A program made the translations under genes and the position numbers. From positions 1 to 64,000 of the IMG/VR virus record IMGVR_UViG_3300008735_000003: a stretch of DNA of 64,000 nt; one strand, 5' to 3'. Below the pieces are notes generated by a model. That model saw only the letters and a list, made by a program, of their open reading frames with translations. It made no database searches and had not been told where the DNA came from. This DNA is from a virus. This document shows positions 1 to 35,118 of the stretch, piece by piece (positions within the stretch are counted from its first letter, which is position 1; every line of letters starts with the position of its first letter).

Positions 1-1848
<1,848 letters not shown>

Positions 1849-1879
1849 CCCGTTAAATTGGAGGATAAGATGTCTATGG

Positions 1880-2852
1880 ACGCATTCTCGAATCTTAATT
1901 AAGGCAACACGTGCATAGTGTTTCTTTGTAAGTCGCGAAAGCTTTTTTTAAGATTCGTAAAAAAGCCTGTAGAGGTAATAATACTTTGAGCTCACGCAAA
2001 AAGCGAAGCTTGTAAATCTGATTTCGTTAAAATCGCCTGCAAGCCCTAGATATAATGTGTAGGGTGGGTTTTATCGGAAAAGGATGGATTTTTAATTTTG
2101 GCAAGCTTAACGTTCGAATAACCAATCCGAATTAATTGAGCAATATGTTGCGCTTAATTAAGGAGGAAAGGAAAATTTTTGAATATGAAGTGTTTGGAAG
2201 GTTACATCGTTGCAGCGATCTAAACCGTAGTAAAACGCCAATCTATTCGAAAAAGTTTTGGTACTTGTTAAAGCACAAAAATCCAAAGGGTTTTTGATCT
2301 ACATTTAAAATCACTGGGTCAAACCTAAAGACAAACTTAATTGAAGTGTATGAATGTCCGACCAACCCGCATCCTAATGTGGGGCGCCTTAGGTCGATCA
2401 AAAACTACAATTAATTGTGAATAGATAAGAAGATAGATAATAAGCCAAATGAAACAGGCCGAATTATTAATCCTCATATTAAAGTTTAAATCTTAGTTTT
2501 GAAAAATAGAACCTTATTTTATTTTCGATGTCGTAGTTAAGGCGAAATTACGACGGCTGAGTTGGAAAGTGAACGATAAAACGTAGATAGGATCGTTTAC
2601 CGTGTGCCAGATTTTTTACACCTAGTCTAATTGTTTGGATTATGATGGTGAAAAAAAAATAGCATAATTTCCTATAATAAGCAAATCAACCCCATGTTAG
2701 GGGTCTACAAAATGCCATTGATCAAAGGCAATAAAAAACGATAAGAGGAAGAAATTGCAAATCGCAAAATTTGGCAACATTAAATTCTAAAGCGACCACG
2801 CAATAGAAACCCATTTTTAAGGGGCTAGAGGTGAGGGGAAAACCCTCACCTC
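1880..2852 (+). ncRNA. Candidate large structured non-coding RNA (~970 nt)
   Basis: No plausible gene spans 1849-2897, in a window where genes otherwise abut. The stretch is rich in helices I can pair by eye: 1889-1898 with 1948-1957 (10 bp), 2044-2048 with 2060-2064, 2132-2141 with 2152-2161 (10 bp, one G-U), 2200-2203/2206-2210 with 2215-2219/2223-2226, 2277-2284 with 2288-2295, 2359-2363 with 2392-2396 enclosing 2067... correction: enclosing 2367-2372 with 2377-2382, 2530-2535 with 2549-2554, 2569-2577 with 2592-2600 (9 bp), 2689-2693 with 2700-2704, and 2713-2716 with 2727-2730. A possible long-range helix pairs 2065-2071 with 2807-2813. The region ends in a terminator-like 10-bp hairpin. 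Size, phage context and ornate folding resemble the GOLLD and ROOL classes of giant phage RNAs, but I cannot assign a family. The 5' end is uncertain, and no clear promoter of its own is visible. Confidence 0.6.
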
Positions 2853-2879
2853 GTATGCCTTCTTGTTCTTTTCTTTAGT
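2828..2879 (+). terminator. Terminator-like hairpin after the structured RNA
   Basis: A perfect 10-bp stem (2828-2837 with 2843-2852, GAGGTGAGGG arm) closes a 5-nt GAAAA loop and is followed by a T-rich but interrupted tract at 2856-2879. It plausibly ends transcription of the structured region. The lack of an uninterrupted T run directly after the stem lowers confidence. Confidence 0.7.
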
Positions 2880-2891
2880 TTTTAGTATAAT
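2863..2891 (+). promoter_or_regulatory. Sigma70-type promoter, predicted leaderless start
   Basis: TTGTTC (2863-2868), a 17-nt spacer and a consensus TATAAT (2886-2891) lie just after the hairpin. The ATG of the next gene begins 7 nt after the last base of the -10 box, so the predicted +1 is the A of the start codon. No Shine-Dalgarno sequence is present between them. Confidence 0.6.
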
Positions 2892-2897
2892 ATTTAC

Positions 2898-3041
2898 ATG
2901 ATGGAAATAGATAAAAAGTTCTTAAGCCTAGCGGAACCCATTAAAGATGATGGCGGAGAGAAGAAAATATCCAAGTGTAAGAAATGCCTAGTCAAAGCGG
3001 TATATAAAAGCTTTTGCATAAACTGCGGGAAATACTCTTAA
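2898..3041 (+). CDS. 47-aa zinc-ribbon peptide
   Basis: A small gene of 48 codons. Cysteines 27, 30, 40 and 43 form two CxxC knuckles (CKKC, CINC), as in a minimal zinc ribbon; the rest is charged. The start is the first of two adjacent ATGs, placed where the promoter predicts +1, so translation may be leaderless. It lies three bases upstream of the next gene and is probably co-transcribed with it. Small phage zinc ribbons often bind nucleic acid or RNA polymerase, but nothing here shows the target. Confidence 0.65.
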   Translation: MMEIDKKFLSLAEPIKDDGGEKKISKCKKCLVKAVYKSFCINCGKYS

Positions 3042-3044
3042 TTT

Positions 3045-3899
3045 ATGCAAAAGCCTTTAGACATCCTTTTAGAAGACCAAAAGACATCAAAATATATAAC
3101 ATCCAGCACTATAACTAAAGAAAAAAATCCGTTTGATTCTAGGGCTCAAGTAAGCCTATTAAACGACTCCATAATAGGTTTCTTAATAGATGAATATATA
3201 CATCATTCTGAACTATACTCGCTTATATTCGAAGCCGAGTTGAAAGGAGCAATAATGAACGTCGACGAATTTGTGGCGTTAAATAACGGAGACATAATTA
3301 AAACATCAGACCTATGGTCCATTATTTGTTCTTCTATAGTTAAGTCTCAAAAAAATCACATTATACTAAAGTGTAAGGAAGGTGTTGATTCTTTTTTGGT
3401 TTTGGATTTGGATAAAATCGTTTCTAACGATCGTCTAGACTTCTATAGAATGAATAGAATGATACAACAAGTTTTTGTATCGCTTAAAGATGAGGGTGAA
3501 AAAAATGTCGAGCATAAATGGAAAATAAAAAATATAGGCAAACTTATAAAGAGACAAATAGATAATGGATCGTTGTCGCCCTTGTCGCGCTTTAAGATTA
3601 TAGAAACCATCTCAAATGTAGTCGAACAAATAAACGACACGTTTAGAGTATTTTCTTCTATAACAAATTTGAAGTATTCCTTAGCGTTGGATGTATTATC
3701 CCTGTCTGACGCACTTGGAAGGGAAAGAATGAATAAACTCCAATTCTTCATTTATTCGAGCCTGGGTCAAAAAACCCCCATAGTTCCACCGTTGACCTTT
3801 ATAAAAAAAGGGGGTCAAAAATCGGGTTCTTACGATGATTTACACCGTATATTCGAGTTTTCTCTTAAGAATAACGCGGAAGAAATCATCATTTTGTAG
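3045..3899 (+). CDS. Unknown 284-aa protein
   Basis: I do not recognise this protein. It is largely predicted alpha-helical, with a charged central part (about residues 150-175) and no cysteine clusters, signal peptide or membrane segment. It starts three bases after the zinc-ribbon peptide stops, without a clear Shine-Dalgarno sequence, suggesting translational coupling. It sits among non-structural small genes before the resolvase, so a role in nucleic acid metabolism or host takeover is as likely as a structural one. Confidence 0.6.
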   Translation: MQKPLDILLEDQKTSKYITSSTITKEKNPFDSRAQVSLLNDSIIGFLIDEYIHHSELYSLIFEAELKGAIMNVDEFVALNNGDIIKTSDLWSIICSSIVKSQKNHIILKCKEGVDSFLVLDLDKIVSNDRLDFYRMNRMIQQVFVSLKDEGEKNVEHKWKIKNIGKLIKRQIDNGSLSPLSRFKIIETISNVVEQINDTFRVFSSITNLKYSLALDVLSLSDALGRERMNKLQFFIYSSLGQKTPIVPPLTFIKKGGQKSGSYDDLHRIFEFSLKNNAEEIIIL

Positions 3900-3931
3900 G
3901 GATATTGTTCCGAAACTTCTGGCCTTGTTAC

Positions 3932-3953
3932 TTCTATCAGTGGATCGATAGAA
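3932..3953 (+). promoter_or_regulatory. Leader hairpin before small membrane peptide
   Basis: A 7-bp inverted repeat (TTCTATC at 3932-3938 with GATAGAA at 3947-3953) ends just before the GAGG ribosome binding site of the next small gene. It could modulate translation. No regulator or ligand is evident. Confidence 0.35.
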
Positions 3954-3965
3954 AGAGGATGATAT

Positions 3966-4100
3966 ATGAGCTTCTTTAGAAGGATAGCACATTTTACTAC
4001 CGTTCTTGTCGCTGGTCTGTTTTTGGCCTCCAAGCTTCTTAGGAAAGTTGGAGAGGCTATTTTAGACGTAGCTTCGAAAATGAATACCGTCGTGGCGTAA
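3966..4100 (+). CDS. 44-aa small membrane peptide
   Basis: A short gene, ATG at 3966 with GAGG upstream, encoding a peptide with basic residues at the N terminus (FFRR), one hydrophobic stretch of about 15-18 residues (TTVLVAGLFLA core) and a second amphipathic helix. This looks like a single-pass membrane or membrane-binding peptide. It is followed at once by a stable stem-loop and then a strong terminator. Candidate roles include membrane-active host-takeover peptide or toxin-like peptide; none is demonstrated. The clear ribosome binding site makes it likely to be real. Confidence 0.5.
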   Translation: MSFFRRIAHFTTVLVAGLFLASKLLRKVGEAILDVASKMNTVVA

Positions 4101-4101
4101 T

Positions 4102-4147
4102 CACCCTATTGGAAAAACGACATTAATTCGTCGTGCCCAATATAGTG
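4102..4147 (+). other. Stable stem-loop in 3' region of small membrane peptide gene
   Basis: Nested inverted repeats start right after the stop codon: CAC with GTG at the outside, TATTGG with CCAATA, then ACGAC with GTCGT around an A/T-rich loop. Together they form a long interrupted hairpin. It is not followed by a T run, so it is not a terminator. It could be a 3' UTR element or part of a small RNA that ends at the terminator 100 bases on. The remaining 4148-4245 is A/T-rich with no gene that I can see. Confidence 0.4.
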
Positions 4148-4245
4148 ATTAGCTAAACATTTATTTTTTTAATTCCTTACACACCACGACAATGAAATAA
4201 AAACAAATATATACATGGTCTTCTAAACAAAAAAGCCTATATTTG

Positions 4246-4271
4246 GGCGGGGGCCTTCCCCCGCCTCTTTT
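4246..4271 (+). terminator. Strong Rho-independent terminator
   Basis: A perfect 8-bp GC stem (GGCGGGGG at 4246-4253 with CCCCCGCC at 4258-4265) has a 4-nt loop and is followed by TCTTTT. It separates the small-gene unit from the resolvase unit, which has its own promoter directly downstream. Confidence 0.9.
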
Positions 4272-4285
4272 AGCCAAAAAATAGC

Positions 4286-4314
4286 TTGACTTTTTTTTAG
4301 CCATGAATTAACAT
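4286..4314 (+). promoter_or_regulatory. Promoter of resolvase operon, predicted leaderless start
   Basis: TTGACT (4286-4291), 17-nt spacer, TAACAT (4309-4314). The ATG at 4322 lies 8 nt after the end of the -10, matching the predicted +1, and no Shine-Dalgarno sequence is present. The position right after the strong terminator supports a new transcription unit. Confidence 0.6.
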
Positions 4315-4321
4315 TAATATT

Positions 4322-4963
4322 ATGAGAATAATGGGAATAGACCAAAATACTCATACAAGTGGATTCGTTATAGTTGACCTCTCCTTAAATGAAAATGGAG
4401 AGGAAGTAATAAAGGTTGTTTATAGCGGATTTCCAATCAATGCTAAGAGATCAAAAAAATTGCAAGAAAGACTATATGAAAAGTCTTCGCACCTTAGAAA
4501 AGGTATGCATAAAATACTTTCCGAATACAAACCAGATATAGTTATTAGGGAAGAAATAAATCCAAGGGGATCTTCATCGAATCAAATTAATATGGTCAAT
4601 GGAATCTTAGATGCATACTTCTTTTCAAAAAAATATTCGTTCCTAAACGGAAAATATAAGCGAATCACGCCCGTGGAGTGGCGTAATATAATCATCCCAA
4701 ATTTCCCCAGATTTAAGAAAACGACGATAAAAACCAAAAAAGAATATTGTCAAATATTCATAGATAATTTATCCGAAAGGAATATAGAGGGGTTTGAAAA
4801 AATATTCCACGATGCGGATCTACTAGACGCATTCGGCATGGCCTATGCGTGCTCCGTTGGAATGATGGCTGGAGAGAATGAAAAGTATAGAGAAAGCCTT
4901 GGGGAAATTCCTGCTAGGCTTATAGTTAGTCGAAAAACTGGCGAACTTAAAAAATGGGACTAA
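4322..4963 (+). CDS. RuvC-like Holliday junction resolvase
   Basis: A 213-aa protein with the RuvC/RNase H-fold layout. The N-terminal strand carries the first catalytic Asp (GIDQN, Asp7), a second strand ends in acidic residues (IVIREE, Glu77/78), and a C-terminal helix has the DxxDA pattern (Asp166, Asp169) typical of RuvC. Such enzymes cut branched DNA. In phages they resolve recombination and replication intermediates before or during packaging, and may cooperate with the terminase. It is first in an operon with the OB-fold gene, whose ATG follows 10 bases after the stop with a GGAGG site. The fold call is strong; the exact substrate is inferred. Confidence 0.85.
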   Translation: MRIMGIDQNTHTSGFVIVDLSLNENGEEVIKVVYSGFPINAKRSKKLQERLYEKSSHLRKGMHKILSEYKPDIVIREEINPRGSSSNQINMVNGILDAYFFSKKYSFLNGKYKRITPVEWRNIIIPNFPRFKKTTIKTKKEYCQIFIDNLSERNIEGFEKIFHDADLLDAFGMAYACSVGMMAGENEKYRESLGEIPARLIVSRKTGELKKWD

Positions 4964-4972
4964 GGAGGGCGT

Positions 4973-5935
4973 ATGGCGCTTCGGTTTTCTATTTCAGACC
5001 TATATAAGCAGTCTCTTATCGGCGTAGAAGTTTTGGTAAACGGCTTTATATTCAGCATGAGCAAAATGGATAGGAATGAACATGGCTCATTCCTAAGGAT
5101 AAAGCTATTCGATGGCAAGTCATTTATAATGGCAACCGTATGGGATGATAGCGCCGATTTCTGGTTATCTCTTTATGAGGACGGATATAACTATATATCT
5201 GAAGCCGAATTTAAGGTGGTTAATTATAGTAGTCGAATAGAACTTCGAACTAACTCTATAACCAAAGATGCCTTTAAAATTAAAGACGATAAAGAATTAT
5301 ATAACAGAGGCTTTATAGATCCAAAAAAAACCATAGCTGAATTTAATAAAAATAAAAAACTTATAGCGGAAAAGAATAATAGAAACCTTTTGGATGCCAT
5401 TATAGACTTCGTTAAGGATGGGGAAAATGGTCTTCTTTCTATGAACGAGCCCCGTTTAAAACCAAATGAAACTCCGGGGTCGTCCTATGATACGCAATTC
5501 CCGTTCAATTATGGAATGATTTCTAAGGCTAATTTAGCGATGGACTATATGAGAGATTTATTTAGTCGGTTCCCCTATCTAAAGGTCAAACTAGATACGG
5601 ATGCGTTATATATTGCAACCCTAGTGTTTTTTTTAGCCCATACTTTCCTTTTTGAGCAGAATGGGGGTGGCGGATATAAAGTGAGTACGATAGGGGGAGC
5701 TCTAACCCCCGAGATGGCAAGCTCGATTCTACTCTCTAAAATTGAATCGCAAGGCGATATAAATCTAAGGGTTGGAAAATTAATTTCTTCCATAGGGAAG
5801 GTTCCCACTATACCAAATCAAAAAACAAGCAGGACGCTCGAAGAAGTCGTACTTGATAAGGGAATAAAGCATGCCTCATCCATGGGTGACATATTGTATT
5901 TGGCTGAAAGAGAAGAGGAGGTTCCATGTCGATAG
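4973..5935 (+). CDS. OB-fold nucleic-acid-binding protein
   Basis: A 320-aa protein. Residues ~10-105 have the strand pattern of an OB fold (VLVNGFIFSMSK, IKLFDGKSFIMATVWDD, YISEAEFKVVNYSSRIEL), similar to the N-terminal domain of YhaM-type exonucleases and to single-strand-binding modules. The C-terminal ~170 residues are helical. One helix (DALYIATLVFFLAHTFLF) recalls the HD-domain core, but no complete HD metal site is visible, so catalytic activity is doubtful. Start: ATG with GGAGG 7 bases upstream. It follows the resolvase in the same operon and overlaps the next gene by 10 bases. A DNA- or RNA-binding role in recombination or replication is likely. Confidence 0.6.
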   Translation: MALRFSISDLYKQSLIGVEVLVNGFIFSMSKMDRNEHGSFLRIKLFDGKSFIMATVWDDSADFWLSLYEDGYNYISEAEFKVVNYSSRIELRTNSITKDAFKIKDDKELYNRGFIDPKKTIAEFNKNKKLIAEKNNRNLLDAIIDFVKDGENGLLSMNEPRLKPNETPGSSYDTQFPFNYGMISKANLAMDYMRDLFSRFPYLKVKLDTDALYIATLVFFLAHTFLFEQNGGGGYKVSTIGGALTPEMASSILLSKIESQGDINLRVGKLISSIGKVPTIPNQKTSRTLEEVVLDKGIKHASSMGDILYLAEREEEVPCR

Positions 5936-6387
5936 ATATAGATAATATAAAACGAATAGTAGAAAAAGCAAAAAAGAATGGGAAAGTTAGAGACCTTAAA
6001 AAAAATGATGAGAAAAAAGATAAGGAAGAGGAAGAAAAAGCCCAGGTTGAAGTTGGGGATATTACCGAGACAAAATACTTAGAAGACTTTTTAAGGCTAA
6101 TTAAACATATAAATGGAGTTGTATCTGAATTTGCTTCTGACGAGGGGGCAGAATTTATGGGATTTCACTACTCCAATTTAGAGAAGGAGCTTACTGAAAT
6201 GAAGTCCGAAGGCGAGGATGAAAAAATAGGGGAAATCATACGCACTATAGTGTTGAACGAGATAAATTTCCTAAACATAGTATTTGGACCATCCATTTTT
6301 TTAGCAGAAAATCCTGAGGTTTTATATAAAAAAGAAATGGCACAGTTTTTATTACTCAAGCATGCCAACTCCCTGAAAATAGAATAG
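5926..6387 (+). CDS. Unknown 153-aa charged protein
   Basis: Not recognised. The N-terminal ~45 residues are extremely rich in Lys and Glu (a probable coiled coil or disordered linker). The C-terminal ~100 residues are predicted helical, with a hydrophobic core around NEINFLNIVFGPSIFLAE. The start has a strong GAGGAGG site inside the end of the OB-fold gene, so the two are translationally coupled. It is the last gene of the resolvase operon; a new promoter follows immediately. Confidence 0.6.
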   Translation: MSIDIDNIKRIVEKAKKNGKVRDLKKNDEKKDKEEEEKAQVEVGDITETKYLEDFLRLIKHINGVVSEFASDEGAEFMGFHYSNLEKELTEMKSEGEDEKIGEIIRTIVLNEINFLNIVFGPSIFLAENPEVLYKKEMAQFLLLKHANSLKIE

Positions 6388-6393
6388 ACGCTC

Positions 6394-6402
6394 TGATATA
6401 CT
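6394..6402 (+). promoter_or_regulatory. Extended -10 promoter (TGATATACT)
   Basis: TGATATACT, followed by ARAT, is shared exactly with the promoter at 15752-15760. Both lie upstream of runs of structural genes and lack a good -35. This looks like a late-type extended -10 promoter. Predicted +1 is near 6409, which places the usable start of the next gene at 6440. Confidence 0.55.
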
Positions 6403-6439
6403 AAATATGACCTTCTTTTTAATGATGGGGGCTTTTTCT

Positions 6440-7024
6440 ATGGGATTACAAGAGACGTTAATTAAAATGATGCAAAAAGAAGCGCCAAGCGCATTAACTG
6501 GCGCTTCTCTCGGCTCTATAGTCGGGGGAACCTCTGGATATAATGATCCGCATAATCCACACAACGTTTTAAATACCGCCGAAGAATCAATAGGTGGCGG
6601 AATTAAAGGCATGGGGTTGGGAGTTGGGGCTGGCCTGACAGCGGGACAAATATCCAAAGTTATGGAGGGTGGTCCTGGTAAATTAAAACATCTTTTAGGT
6701 CTTGGTGCCGGTCTAGGCACATTGGGTGGAATTGCAAAGTCATATACCAATCCGTTTCAGAGGTCCGATATATCCGATTACGCATCCTCAGGATTGGAGG
6801 GAGGAGCCATAGGTTCTTCCATGTTAGGCGGAGGGGCGCTAGCCCATAAATTACTAAGCGGAACAAAAAACCCGTATATAAGGACACTTGGCACCATCGG
6901 CGGAGGATTAACATCGGGTGTTGCTGGGAATCTGGGGATTCAAAAAATTAAGGAATATATAGATGGGATGGGTCAACAAGGCCACACACCTCAACAATAT
7001 TATCAACAATACGGCGGGTACTAA
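6440..7024 (+). CDS. Glycine-rich hydrophobic protein
   Basis: A 194-aa protein built from Gly/Ala/Ser-rich hydrophobic stretches (GASLGSIVGG, GMGLGVGAGLTAG, LLGLGAGLGTLGG), resembling glycine-zipper membrane segments. I choose the ATG at 6440, preceded by GGGGGC, over the in-frame ATG at 6407, which falls at or before the predicted transcription start. Similar proteins recur at 29297, 29878, 30237, 31470 and in the N-terminal part of the tape measure. Such sequences may line or insert in membranes during DNA entry, or be ejected from the virion; this is inference. Confidence 0.65.
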   Translation: MGLQETLIKMMQKEAPSALTGASLGSIVGGTSGYNDPHNPHNVLNTAEESIGGGIKGMGLGVGAGLTAGQISKVMEGGPGKLKHLLGLGAGLGTLGGIAKSYTNPFQRSDISDYASSGLEGGAIGSSMLGGGALAHKLLSGTKNPYIRTLGTIGGGLTSGVAGNLGIQKIKEYIDGMGQQGHTPQQYYQQYGGY

Positions 7025-7025
7025 T

Positions 7026-7880
7026 ATGAAATTAGATAGTTTTAAAGAGTTTTTAAAAAGAGCCAATAATGATTTTCTTGAAACGCAGGAGGATGTAGAA
7101 AGAAAAGAGGTAGATGAAGCCGCCATCGGCGAAACTCGCAATAAAATAGAAACCGACGCTCAGAATAAAATAAATGAAGTAAAAGCGCTATATGAAGAAA
7201 AAGTTAATGATATAGAGCTAACAAAGATATTAGAAGAAAGGCAATTAGAAGAGAGAACTAAAATGGAAATGGAAGGGGCAGAACAGGAATTTATGGAGGG
7301 GGCCCAGTCTATATCTGTTGAGTCCGATGAGTTGAGTGGACAATTCCTGTCCGACGAAGATATGGATGGACAACTTTTAGAACAAAAAGCTCAAGAAAAA
7401 GAACAAGAATTACAGGAAGAACATAATTTAGAGCAGGCTGGTGGAGGGGGCGGACAACAAGATGAAAAGGTTGATGGCGGTAATATAAGCGATGGAATGA
7501 TGCCGCAAGGATCGGTTGGCGGGGGAGGAGAACAAAAAATGTCCTCCGAATTAATGTCGTTCGCATTGCCGGATAGAAGATATCCGGTTTACAATAGAGA
7601 GCTAGCTTATAGATCGTTGGAGATAGCTAAAGTTGCCGGCGATGAATATGAAATGAAAAAGGTTTTTGAGGCGGTTGTAGAAAATTTCGGCGTAGGTTTT
7701 TTTAAGATATCAGACGATCGAATGTCGAAAGTGGCTGCCAGCTATACGGGACTATCCCCGCTACGAGATCAAAACTGCGCAAAGTGCCGGTTTTTTTCTG
7801 TTGGTAAAATGGCGTGCGATAAAACGCATGGAAAAATAGCTGCCGCTGGATGGTGCGATAATTTTAAACCATCCGTTTAG
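7026..7880 (+). CDS. Head-region protein with HiPIP-like four-cysteine C terminus
   Basis: A 284-aa protein. The N-terminal ~150 residues form a Glu/Lys/Gln-rich coiled coil, followed by a Gly-rich linker. Residues ~175-230 contain an ALPDRRYPV segment that recurs in the next gene. The C terminus has Cys251, 254, 264 and 277 in a CxxCxxF...C...GWCDNF arrangement, close to the cluster-binding pattern of high-potential iron-sulfur proteins. The same motif is also found in some phage head proteins of unknown metal content. I use the ATG at 7026, one base after the previous stop; the frame is open further upstream inside that gene. It may be a scaffold or core component; metal binding is inferred. 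Confidence 0.6.
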   Translation: MKLDSFKEFLKRANNDFLETQEDVERKEVDEAAIGETRNKIETDAQNKINEVKALYEEKVNDIELTKILEERQLEERTKMEMEGAEQEFMEGAQSISVESDELSGQFLSDEDMDGQLLEQKAQEKEQELQEEHNLEQAGGGGGQQDEKVDGGNISDGMMPQGSVGGGGEQKMSSELMSFALPDRRYPVYNRELAYRSLEIAKVAGDEYEMKKVFEAVVENFGVGFFKISDDRMSKVAASYTGLSPLRDQNCAKCRFFSVGKMACDKTHGKIAAAGWCDNFKPSV

Positions 7881-7893
7881 TAGGAGGAAAAAT

Positions 7894-9111
7894 ATGGGAA
7901 TTTACTTTGATTCAAATAAAGAATATGATTTAAACGATCATATTGAACGAGGAAATATGGAGGACCTCGCCAACTTTATAAAGGAGGGCGAGGATACTAT
8001 CCCATCATATATACTGAGCGGGGAATCCCCCTACCACGACCCAAAACAAATAGGTGACGATGGTTTCGCCTTGGTTATTAAAGAGGGAGCAGAGTCGTTT
8101 CGTAGATTTCCAGTTCATAGCAAGGCTGATACTTGGATGACACAACAAGCCTTCATTAAAACGTGTCATTCCTTGCCTATATCGTGCGTGGGTCGTACTG
8201 CCCACGTTATAAAGAGCGCGTGCGAATTCTTTGATATAGAGATAAACGATTTCGTGAAGCGAGCTTCTGGAAAGGCTATAAAATTCGAAAACGCATCTTT
8301 AAATACAATAGATTTTAATGACCACGATGTTTGCTTCCTAGAAGATAAATTAGCGTCAGATATGCAAATGGAATTTCATTACGCACTCCCATCTGAGGAG
8401 AGATATCCGCTAAATACTCAGAAGGAAATCAAGATGGCCTGCGAATATTTTCAAAAGCATGCCGAAGAACTAGGGAGCCTCGGAGAAGCCGAAGAGTTTG
8501 CGGAAAATGTTAAATTGGCCTGTATAAAATTTAACGTAGATATTCCAGAAGCCATATATGAATGTACTGACGATTACAACCCCATCAATCTTGAGGTTAT
8601 AAAGAAGGCGGTAGACGATAGAATTTATGTAGCAAATAGAATGTGGGATTCTAAACGTGTCGCCAATATAAAGTTGGCCTACGATAATATTATCGAGAAC
8701 GCCCCGTTTTTAAAACCGAGCGAGGTAATACATAAAATGGAAGAGGTGGATAGCGGCATGATGAAGATAGCCAAGTATAACCACTTTCAAAAACCATCCG
8801 ACATAATTAAAATATCCTCTATTTTTGAAGGCAAAGACATAAGTGTGAATGAAACTCACGTTTCTCCGAATTTCGATTCAACCATGATCGAAGGGGAAGA
8901 GAGTGTAATAAATTCTGGAAATCACGTCCTTAATGACGAAGAATATGAAGCGTTGGAAACGGCCTTTAGTATGAATCCGAAGAGTCTCCACGGTTTTATA
9001 TCGGATGAAACCATAGAAGGTTTAATGGTTAATTTCCGTGAGACCTATGAAATGTTGCCGATTGATGATAAACTTACAATCAAACAAGTATTAACGACTC
9101 ATATGGAGTAG
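7894..9111 (+). CDS. Unknown head-region protein with YP-motif repeats
   Basis: A 405-aa protein without a recognised enzymatic domain. It carries two copies of an [aromatic/Arg]-[FY]-P-[LV] segment followed by a helix (FRRFPVHSKADTW near residue 70; ALPSEERYPLNTQKE near 165), the second like the motif in the preceding gene and in DUF6582-type phage proteins. The rest is mostly helical and acidic. Start: ATG with GGAGG 7-8 bases upstream. It lies in a tight run with the portal and is most likely a virion or head-assembly protein. Confidence 0.55.
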   Translation: MGIYFDSNKEYDLNDHIERGNMEDLANFIKEGEDTIPSYILSGESPYHDPKQIGDDGFALVIKEGAESFRRFPVHSKADTWMTQQAFIKTCHSLPISCVGRTAHVIKSACEFFDIEINDFVKRASGKAIKFENASLNTIDFNDHDVCFLEDKLASDMQMEFHYALPSEERYPLNTQKEIKMACEYFQKHAEELGSLGEAEEFAENVKLACIKFNVDIPEAIYECTDDYNPINLEVIKKAVDDRIYVANRMWDSKRVANIKLAYDNIIENAPFLKPSEVIHKMEEVDSGMMKIAKYNHFQKPSDIIKISSIFEGKDISVNETHVSPNFDSTMIEGEESVINSGNHVLNDEEYEALETAFSMNPKSLHGFISDETIEGLMVNFRETYEMLPIDDKLTIKQVLTTHME

Positions 9112-32907: not shown

Positions 32908-35118
32908 ATGGCGATAGGAAATAGACCAGTTGAAATAACTCAGATTTATGAGCCCAGAGGGACCTCCTTCATAACGCCAAGATTAGTACCGGTTGCTATT
33001 GGAGTCTTAAAGCAAAAGATCAAGAAAGCTCTTATGGGGTCATACGATGGCGGGGGCGTTTCGGATAGCGATACAGATCTGCCGTTTCCATCTATCCTAA
33101 AGGCTGGAGCTCAAGTTGAATCTAGCTCAGTAAAGGTATATATCGATACGAAGCTTAAAGGACATATTTTAATCGAGGATACAAATTACGATGTTACTGA
33201 GGAAGGTTTGACTCTATACCCAGATATTGAGGTTGAGTATAACCTAATAGATGACGGCTCCGGAACTGCCAAAATATATAAAACCGGGACTCAAATAATT
33301 TTAGAAGACACCAAGACCTCATTCATCGCTTCCCATATTTATGGAAATGCGAGTAAAGGAGATAAGGCCACCATATTAGGCTATGATGGAGTACATACCG
33401 TCAAGACGATAATTTCTGCCAATAAAGTAGAACTCGCCTTAGCTGTGGGAAGTACGCTTGAAACAGCCTTTACCGATAGGCCAGATAGAATTTTTACGTC
33501 TATGAAATACGATATCGATAGAACCGTAACGGTGGGGGATACGACCAACCTACTTCCCTCTGGAGACATTTATATATCCTTGGACGCCATAAGAACAGAT
33601 AAGGCTGGGGCTGTGCAGTATATAAGAACTAAAGACGATCTAGATGATCTCGGGCCGTTTTCTCCAGATAATGAGGTCGGATTCGCTTCGCATATTTTTA
33701 ACCAAAGTAAGGACGCCGTAACAGCCTACGTTACTTTAACCGAGCATAGTGCGGATGAACATAATGCAGCTTTGGAATTACTTAAGACCGAAGAGGTTTA
33801 TTACTTGAATCCGCTGACCATGGATAACTCCATCATAAACCTATACATCGGTCATGTCAACGCTATGTCTTTACCCGCAGAAATGAAGGAAAGGGTCGTT
33901 TATTTTTCCAGGATTTTGGAAAATAATGCAGTCCGAGCCCTAGATGATGTTGGTGATATAACTATAACTAGCGGAACTTTCTTTTTAGAAAATACCATAG
34001 GAAATTTTCAAAGTAACGGGGTCCTTCCCGGAGATATAGTAGAATTTACGGATAATGTTGGTAGTCAAGATACATCTGGAAAATATACTGTCACAAATGT
34101 TATTAGCGAAACAAAACTGGAATTATTTGAAAGCGTTAGAAATACGCAGGTGACTGGAACTGATGGTAAAATAGATCGGAATGGGTTTACATTAACCACT
34201 TCGCAAAATTTAGCGGGAGTAACAACGTCTTCGGATGTAGAGATAACGTCTGGAGATGATCCCGGAATATATAGCATTTCTGTGGTAAATTCTAGTGCTG
34301 GCACCATTACCATAGGAAATCCACCTACTGAAGGATTTAAAAGTATGACCGCTGGAAGCTTTACTATTTTCAAAGCGGCAACTTCAACAGGTGGGAACGA
34401 CATCACATACGATATTACATCCTCCGATTTTACGCGGCAGGAACAAGCAGAATATATGAAGGGGTTGGGCGAGTCTTACGGGAATCAAAGAGCCAGGATG
34501 ATTTTTTCTGATAGCTGGCAGTTTGATGCTCCCGATTTAGACGACGATGGAAAAGCCATTACAAGTACATTCACTGTCGGAGGAGAATTTGGAGCGTCTA
34601 CGATCATAGCTATGAGATTCGCTAGAGGGCCGCAAGTTCCCATGACTGGAGAACTTATCCGGCATGCTAGAACGGTATTTAGCTCTAGTCAAATATTTAC
34701 TATGCCGCAACTTCAAATTATACAGAGCGGCGGAGTAATAGTAGTTTTTCCCGATGAAAATTCTACTGTTCCGAGAATAATGCAGCTTTTAACTACGGAC
34801 GTTTCTGACGTCACAAAGCAAGAGGTTACAATTATAGAAGCGGTTGATTTTTTCGCAAAATATGTGCGTTCAAACGTTAGGAAATTTATGGGGATAAATA
34901 ATATAACTCCCCAAGTCCTTAACGTGGCGCACATGAAGATGGACGCCCTTACGAAACAGGTTTTGGAAGACCACGACGGTTGTGGGCCGCTATTTGGCCC
35001 AAAGACCGAACTTTTATCGTTAAAGGCTGCCACTGAATGTCCCGATACTGTAGAAGCCGAATGGGATATTGACCCATTATTTCCTTGGAATAAAACCAAG
35101 ATTAAATTTTATGTTTAA
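32908..35118 (+). CDS. Tail sheath protein
   Basis: A 736-aa protein with an AAGGA site. The C-terminal ~200 residues carry the conserved sheath core: ARGPQVPMTGEL, a strand/helix with VVFPDENSTVPRIMQLLTT, the EAVDFFAKYVRSNVRKFMG helix and a final strand ending in KIKFYV. The N terminus (residues 1-60) is the linker-strand region. Extra beta domains are inserted in the middle, making it longer than minimal sheaths. The sheath contracts to drive the tube through the envelope, which makes this phage a myovirus. Confidence 0.85.
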   Translation: MAIGNRPVEITQIYEPRGTSFITPRLVPVAIGVLKQKIKKALMGSYDGGGVSDSDTDLPFPSILKAGAQVESSSVKVYIDTKLKGHILIEDTNYDVTEEGLTLYPDIEVEYNLIDDGSGTAKIYKTGTQIILEDTKTSFIASHIYGNASKGDKATILGYDGVHTVKTIISANKVELALAVGSTLETAFTDRPDRIFTSMKYDIDRTVTVGDTTNLLPSGDIYISLDAIRTDKAGAVQYIRTKDDLDDLGPFSPDNEVGFASHIFNQSKDAVTAYVTLTEHSADEHNAALELLKTEEVYYLNPLTMDNSIINLYIGHVNAMSLPAEMKERVVYFSRILENNAVRALDDVGDITITSGTFFLENTIGNFQSNGVLPGDIVEFTDNVGSQDTSGKYTVTNVISETKLELFESVRNTQVTGTDGKIDRNGFTLTTSQNLAGVTTSSDVEITSGDDPGIYSISVVNSSAGTITIGNPPTEGFKSMTAGSFTIFKAATSTGGNDITYDITSSDFTRQEQAEYMKGLGESYGNQRARMIFSDSWQFDAPDLDDDGKAITSTFTVGGEFGASTIIAMRFARGPQVPMTGELIRHARTVFSSSQIFTMPQLQIIQSGGVIVVFPDENSTVPRIMQLLTTDVSDVTKQEVTIIEAVDFFAKYVRSNVRKFMGINNITPQVLNVAHMKMDALTKQVLEDHDGCGPLFGPKTELLSLKAATECPDTVEAEWDIDPLFPWNKTKIKFYV

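What the first reader, a model, noticed from the sequence alone, without database searches (positions are those of the whole stretch)
1849..2897. About 1 kb gene-free, heavily structured region: candidate giant phage RNA
Seen directly: no plausible gene in a phage that otherwise leaves few gaps, and at least ten helices of 4-10 bp including 1889-1898/1948-1957, 2132-2141/2152-2161 and 2569-2577/2592-2600, ending in a 10-bp hairpin. A long-range pairing of 2065-2071 with 2807-2813 could close the domain. Two copies of the palindrome-containing CTTAATTAAGG (1894-1904, 2153-2163) could make kissing contacts. Known: GOLLD and ROOL are large, ornate RNAs often carried by phages. Inference: this is a member or a new class of similar size.
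Basis: partly seen in the sequence, partly recalled or inferred. Interest (0 to 1): 0.88.

Follow-up and report, generated by a model that had tools for sequence, protein, structure and literature searches.

The report
Orphan large structured phage RNA candidate
A phage that packs its genes almost end to end leaves one gap of about 1,000 bases that codes for no protein and folds more strongly than chance, so it probably makes a large structured RNA of an undescribed family, but no relative was found with which to prove it.

Summary
1849-2897 is the only gene-free stretch over 350 nt in the 64-kb window. It has no coding signal, and the named helices are there. On the + strand it folds better than shuffled sequence (z about -5 to -7), as strongly as or more strongly than three yardstick phage RNA loci: phage K lnc002 -5.6, Vibrio phage D69 GOLLD -2.9, ICP1 -2.4. 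By Rfam 15 models it is not GOLLD, ROOL or OLE, and it lacks the ICP1-type core. No homologue was found in phage, plasmid or virus collections or in about 60 distantly related phage records, so covariation, the decisive test, could not be run. The best reading is a standalone RNA gene of about 0.8-1 kb. One gene model (promoter-like site 2027-2056, 5'/3' closing helix, terminator-like hairpin 2822-2860) is attractive, but its promoter and closing helix are near chance level. A distant relative, Vibrio phage D69, carries a true GOLLD RNA. 'Large phage RNA, perhaps a new class' is plausible (about 0.65) and unproven; kissing contacts and oligomers are speculation. By-product: the ICP1 RNA has relatives in other vibrio and shewanella phages that Rfam 15 does not match.

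The parts
1849..2897 (+). Gene-free, structured region; candidate large noncoding RNA locus
   Evidence: gap; no coding signal; fold excess, + strand
1860..1902 (+). Ribosome-site-like GGAGG (1860-1864) and 10-codon ORF ATG 1870 to TAA 1902: leader peptide or gene remnant
   Evidence: Read directly; codon score 0.38 on 10 codons only
1889..1957 (+). 5' domain: perfect 10-bp helix 1889-1898/1948-1957 with two inner hairpins; its inner part is followed by a T run (1943-1949) and could end the VWA operon
   Evidence: p 0.99; z -2.82 for 1865-1980; terminator role is inference
2027..2056 (+). Promoter-like site TTAAAA-N18-TATAAT; would start RNA near 2062
   Evidence: sites of this quality are at chance frequency, so weak
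2061..2070 (+). 5' strand of possible closing helix, pairs with 2808-2817
   Evidence: p 0.76-0.78 when folded from 2040 or 2058; control 4/100 shuffles, 6/50 windows
2808..2817 (+). 3' strand of possible closing helix
   Evidence: weak by control
2086..2284 (+). Domain closed by 2086-2093/2277-2284 and 2096-2105/2264-2273, containing hairpin 2132-2141/2152-2161
   Evidence: p 0.85-0.99
2337..2414 (+). Domain closed by 2337-2347/2404-2414 with hairpin 2366-2372/2377-2383
   Evidence: p 0.78-0.84
2492..2672 (+). Domain with hairpins 2499-2511/2517-2528, 2530-2538/2546-2554, 2569-2577/2592-2600, 2612-2622/2647-2657 and 2623-2630/2635-2642
   Evidence: p 0.75-0.99
2822..2880 (+). Terminal hairpin (stem 2828-2837/2843-2852, extended by GGGC/GCCU) and U-rich tail: probable transcription terminator
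   Evidence: z -4.73, no shuffle folds as well
2863..2891 (+). Promoter-like TTGTTC-N17-TATAAT ending 6 bases before ATG 2898; suggests the downstream gene has its own start of transcription
   Evidence: weak

Best explanation
The region encodes, on the + strand, a standalone noncoding RNA of roughly 0.8-1 kb that folds into several branched hairpin domains and ends at the hairpin 2822-2860. Its start may be near 2062, or it may be cut from readthrough of the VWA gene. It most likely acts in trans as an abundant structured RNA during infection, like the ICP1, phage K and GOLLD/ROOL RNAs, rather than as a leader of the downstream gene. Shown here: the gap, no coding signal, fold excess on the + strand, no match to known families. 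Inferred: transcription, boundaries, and a role in infection.
For: Only large gap in a packed genome; no coding signal; fold z -5.35 on + against -3.31 on -, with one of 34 control windows as low; local windows mean z -1.88 against -0.27; 7 long stems against 2.4 expected; terminator-like end; same size and setting as the ICP1 RNA, an about 1-kb ORF-less space with an about 800-nt transcript and no tRNAs (PMC7567579); yardstick RNAs score no better.
Against: No transcript data. No homologue, hence no covariation. One coding window (34001-35042) folds as strongly (z -6.27), so the fold excess alone is not proof. The - strand and the 1849-2061 part show a weaker excess (z -1.64 for 1849-2061).
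Confidence: 0.65

Rival explanations
1. A decayed gene: a gene once followed the VWA gene (its ribosome site and first codons survive at 1860-1902) and has rotted into noncoding sequence with incidental hairpins.
For: GGAGG-N5-ATG eleven bases after the VWA stop looks like an operon gene start.
Against: No coding signal in any frame and no family match; decay does not predict a + strand fold excess or a terminator-like end; a packed phage genome should lose such sequence (inference).
Confidence: 0.12
2. Several small elements rather than one RNA: the end of the VWA operon with its terminator and leader peptide (1849-1950), one or more small RNAs, and a terminator plus promoter for the next operon.
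For: 1901-1949 is terminator-like; most strong helices are local; 1849-2061 is less structured than the rest (z -1.64 against -4.46).
Against: About 740 bases from 2086 to 2830 would still need explaining and carry structure throughout.
Confidence: 0.13
3. A DNA-level element such as a replication origin or packaging site whose inverted repeats act as DNA.
For: Noncoding, AT-rich, a palindromic 11-mer present twice; the - strand also folds somewhat better than chance.
Against: No iteron array or long direct repeat, no clear GC-skew switch in 1-8000, folding prefers the + strand, helices include G-U pairs.
Confidence: 0.08

Closest known systems
Phage ICP1 long noncoding RNA (NC_015157, gap 80097-81107)
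   Same: An ORF-less space of about 1 kb in a phage, about 800-nt RNA, no tRNAs in that phage (PMC7567579), no Rfam match at gathering score
   Different: Shown by RNA-seq to be the most abundant phage transcript; has relatives in other phages sharing a core that is absent here; only a 13-base match to ours
Phage K lnc001 and lnc002 (Kayvirus)
   Same: Phage RNAs of about 0.6-1.15 kb; lnc002 has similar fold z and strand bias (-5.6/-3.8) and no Rfam match apart from the adjoining tRNA
   Different: Next to tRNAs, expression shown (PMC9241854); no sequence similarity
GOLLD RNA (RF02032)
   Same: Phage setting, size (many over 800 nt; PMC12286853), elaborate predicted structure; a true GOLLD lies in a distant relative, Vibrio phage D69
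   Different: Covariance model does not match here; no tRNA in the window
ROOL RNA (RF03087)
   Same: Phage setting and approximate size (env-120 is 659 nt; PMC12286853)
   Different: Covariance model does not match (no positive control); no tRNAs in the window

Membership tests
GOLLD | Match to covariance model RF02032 (conserved 3' domain) | tested here: not met
   No match in own record at E up to 1, while D69 rang with 186 bits; none at E up to 10
GOLLD | Setting near tRNA genes (usual, not universal) | tested here: not met
   No tRNA in 64 kb; the record is probably a fragment
GOLLD | Homo-oligomeric cage | not testable with these tools
   Needs in vitro RNA and cryo-EM
ROOL | Match to covariance model RF03087 | tested here: not met
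   no positive control rang
OLE | Match to the OLE model in Rfam 15 | tested here: not met
   No OLE match at E up to 10 in 1700-3050
Group I or group II intron | Match to the Rfam intron models | tested here: not met
   No match; sizes and divergence leave some doubt
ICP1-type RNA | Core AAGTAAGACACTGTGAATRTCTAG shared by ICP1, Vibrio 1.101.O and Shewanella 1/4 | tested here: not met
   No match in the window with up to 3 mismatches; present in L157, L161, L162
Large structured phage ncRNA (general kind) | No coding capacity and more structure than chance | tested here: met
Large structured phage ncRNA (general kind) | Covariation in homologues | not testable with these tools
   No homologue found in the collections that could be searched
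Large structured phage ncRNA (general kind) | Discrete abundant transcript | not testable with these tools
   No expression data; the virus is known here only as a contig

The most novel reading that the evidence does not exclude
A previously undescribed class of giant phage RNA, unrelated in sequence to GOLLD, ROOL, OLE and the ICP1-type RNA, whose 5' and 3' ends close a multi-domain fold of about 0.8 kb and which assembles into a defined particle as GOLLD and ROOL do.
Probability: 0.15. Interest if true: 0.8.

Novelty: new variant of a known kind. Interest (0 to 1): 0.5.

Why it matters
Large phage RNAs can be the most abundant transcripts of an infection, yet their function is unknown. If this one is real it adds to ICP1 and phage K in suggesting that many phages carry their own, mutually unrelated RNA of about 1 kb outside the few families in Rfam. 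A shared role rather than a shared sequence would then be the thing to look for.

Tried and rejected
Homologue hunting failed by every route: blastn in phages and plasmids (the one plasmid hit is 41 bases, E 0.08, inside a protein gene); protein scans of the VWA, 284-aa and terminase genes in viral contigs; DNA patterns (their loci show no wider match); relatives reached through portal and terminase alignments, whose records were searched whole for the region and for the VWA protein; a covariance model of 2488-2676, which found only itself. A 26-base, 88% match in G012 covers only the ribosome site and start codon, and is taken as chance. A 15-20 base stretch (2192-2211) resembles a repeated element of phage Arash and G003 and is taken as chance because only those bases match. 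The promoter at 2027-2056 and the closing helix made a neat gene model, but the controls put both near chance, so they are kept only as a hypothesis. AlphaFold on the VWA protein alone gave pLDDT 35 and was not used.

Full report
What was checked. The window is bases 1-64000 of a 71,594-base virus record. Its genes are packed and nearly all on one strand. Its structural proteins are very distant relatives of those of large phages such as Salmonella phage Arash and Vibrio phage D69: portal 26-30% identity, terminase about 27% to Arash. A RuvC-like resolvase, a head protease-like protein and a baseplate wedge protein are also recognisable. Since the complete relatives are 170-210 kb, the record is probably a fragment (inference).

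The gap. Between the stop of a VWA gene at 1848 (weak CoxE-like match, below the Pfam cut-off) and the ATG at 2898 of a 47-aa ORF with two CxxC pairs lies the only gene-free stretch of 350 nt or more in the window. Codon usage of the phage's own genes gives no convincing in-frame signal there in any of six frames, and none of seven small ORFs matches Pfam or PHROGs. One oddity is a good ribosome site (GGAGG, 1860-1864) followed by a 10-codon ORF (1870-1902), which may be a leader peptide or the remnant of a gene.

Structure. The full-length fold energy is -272.9 kcal/mol, z -5.35 on the + strand and -3.31 on the - strand (a second, smaller set of shuffles gave -7.34 on +, so the exact figure is soft). 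Of 34 control windows only one (34001-35042, inside a gene, z -6.27) was as low; the next was -2.73. Windows of 160 nt have mean z -1.88 against -0.27 in controls. There are 7 stems of 9 bp or more against 2.4 expected. As yardsticks the same calculation gives -5.6 for phage K lnc002, -2.9 for the D69 GOLLD region and -2.4 for the ICP1 gap, so this region is at least as structured as known phage RNA loci.

Gene model. A terminator-like structure at 2822-2880 ends the region (z -4.73). It is followed by a promoter-like site whose -10 box ends six bases before ATG 2898. A TATAAT box at 2051-2056 would start a transcript near 2062, whose first bases can pair with 2808-2817 just before the terminator-like hairpin (p 0.69-0.78), giving a closed RNA of about 0.8 kb. 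The controls were sobering: promoter-like sites occur at chance frequency in this stretch, and 4 of 100 shuffles and 6 of 50 genomic windows have a comparable closing helix. The model is a hypothesis, not a result.

Known families. Rfam 15 has no match in the window and only three chance-level hits at E up to 10 in the region. The GOLLD and ROOL models do not match the record. The GOLLD search did work: it found a true GOLLD (186 bits, cut-off 150) in Vibrio phage D69, in the middle of a tRNA island. The ROOL search had no positive control. The closest analogue is ICP1, with an about 1-kb ORF-less space, no tRNAs and an about 800-nt most abundant transcript (PMC7567579). Our region shares no more than a 13-mer with it, at a level expected by chance, and lacks the core shared by three ICP1-type RNAs.

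Limits. No homologue was found by any route, so covariation could not be tested, and there is no transcript evidence. The conclusion rests on lack of coding signal, fold excess, strand bias and precedent. Function in trans and any oligomer are inference from the better-known phage RNAs.

Noticed in passing
L157:10098-11108 (-), L159:711-1612, L160:353-1643, L161:127-1382, L162:79-1395: The ICP1 long RNA has partial homologues in gene-poor gaps of other vibrio and shewanella phages, three of which share the exact 18-mer AAGTAAGACACTGTGAAT. Rfam 15 does not match the ICP1 copy at gathering score. With several diverged copies this one could be tested for covariation.
   Followed up: partly
W02 (OZ195729.1) 99273-99683, - strand: A GOLLD RNA (186 bits) in Vibrio phage D69 lies in a tRNA island where the record annotates only small hypothetical ORFs.
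   Followed up: partly
window 4080-4280: A second, smaller structured stretch: long hairpin 4093-4155 (z -4.10) right after a 44-aa ORF, then a very G+C-rich hairpin near 4245-4266 followed by TCTTTT.
   Followed up: partly
window 2886-2900 and 4309-4324: Two gene starts without a visible ribosome site have a -10-like box 6-7 bases before the ATG (TATAAT, TAACAT), as in leaderless genes.
   Followed up: no
window 34001-35042: A coding stretch that folds unusually strongly as RNA (z -6.27), without notable inverted repeats.
   Followed up: no
window 1-1848: The VWA gene begins in a (QG)n repeat at the very end of the record, where the assembly probably broke; no relative of it was found in the phages searched.
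   Followed up: partly
G003 and Arash, e.g. L039:8582, L035:16329, L022:6396: A repeated intergenic element with GTTTGAAAGGTTACAACGTTT in G003, also present in part in Arash; possibly a regulatory repeat.
   Followed up: no
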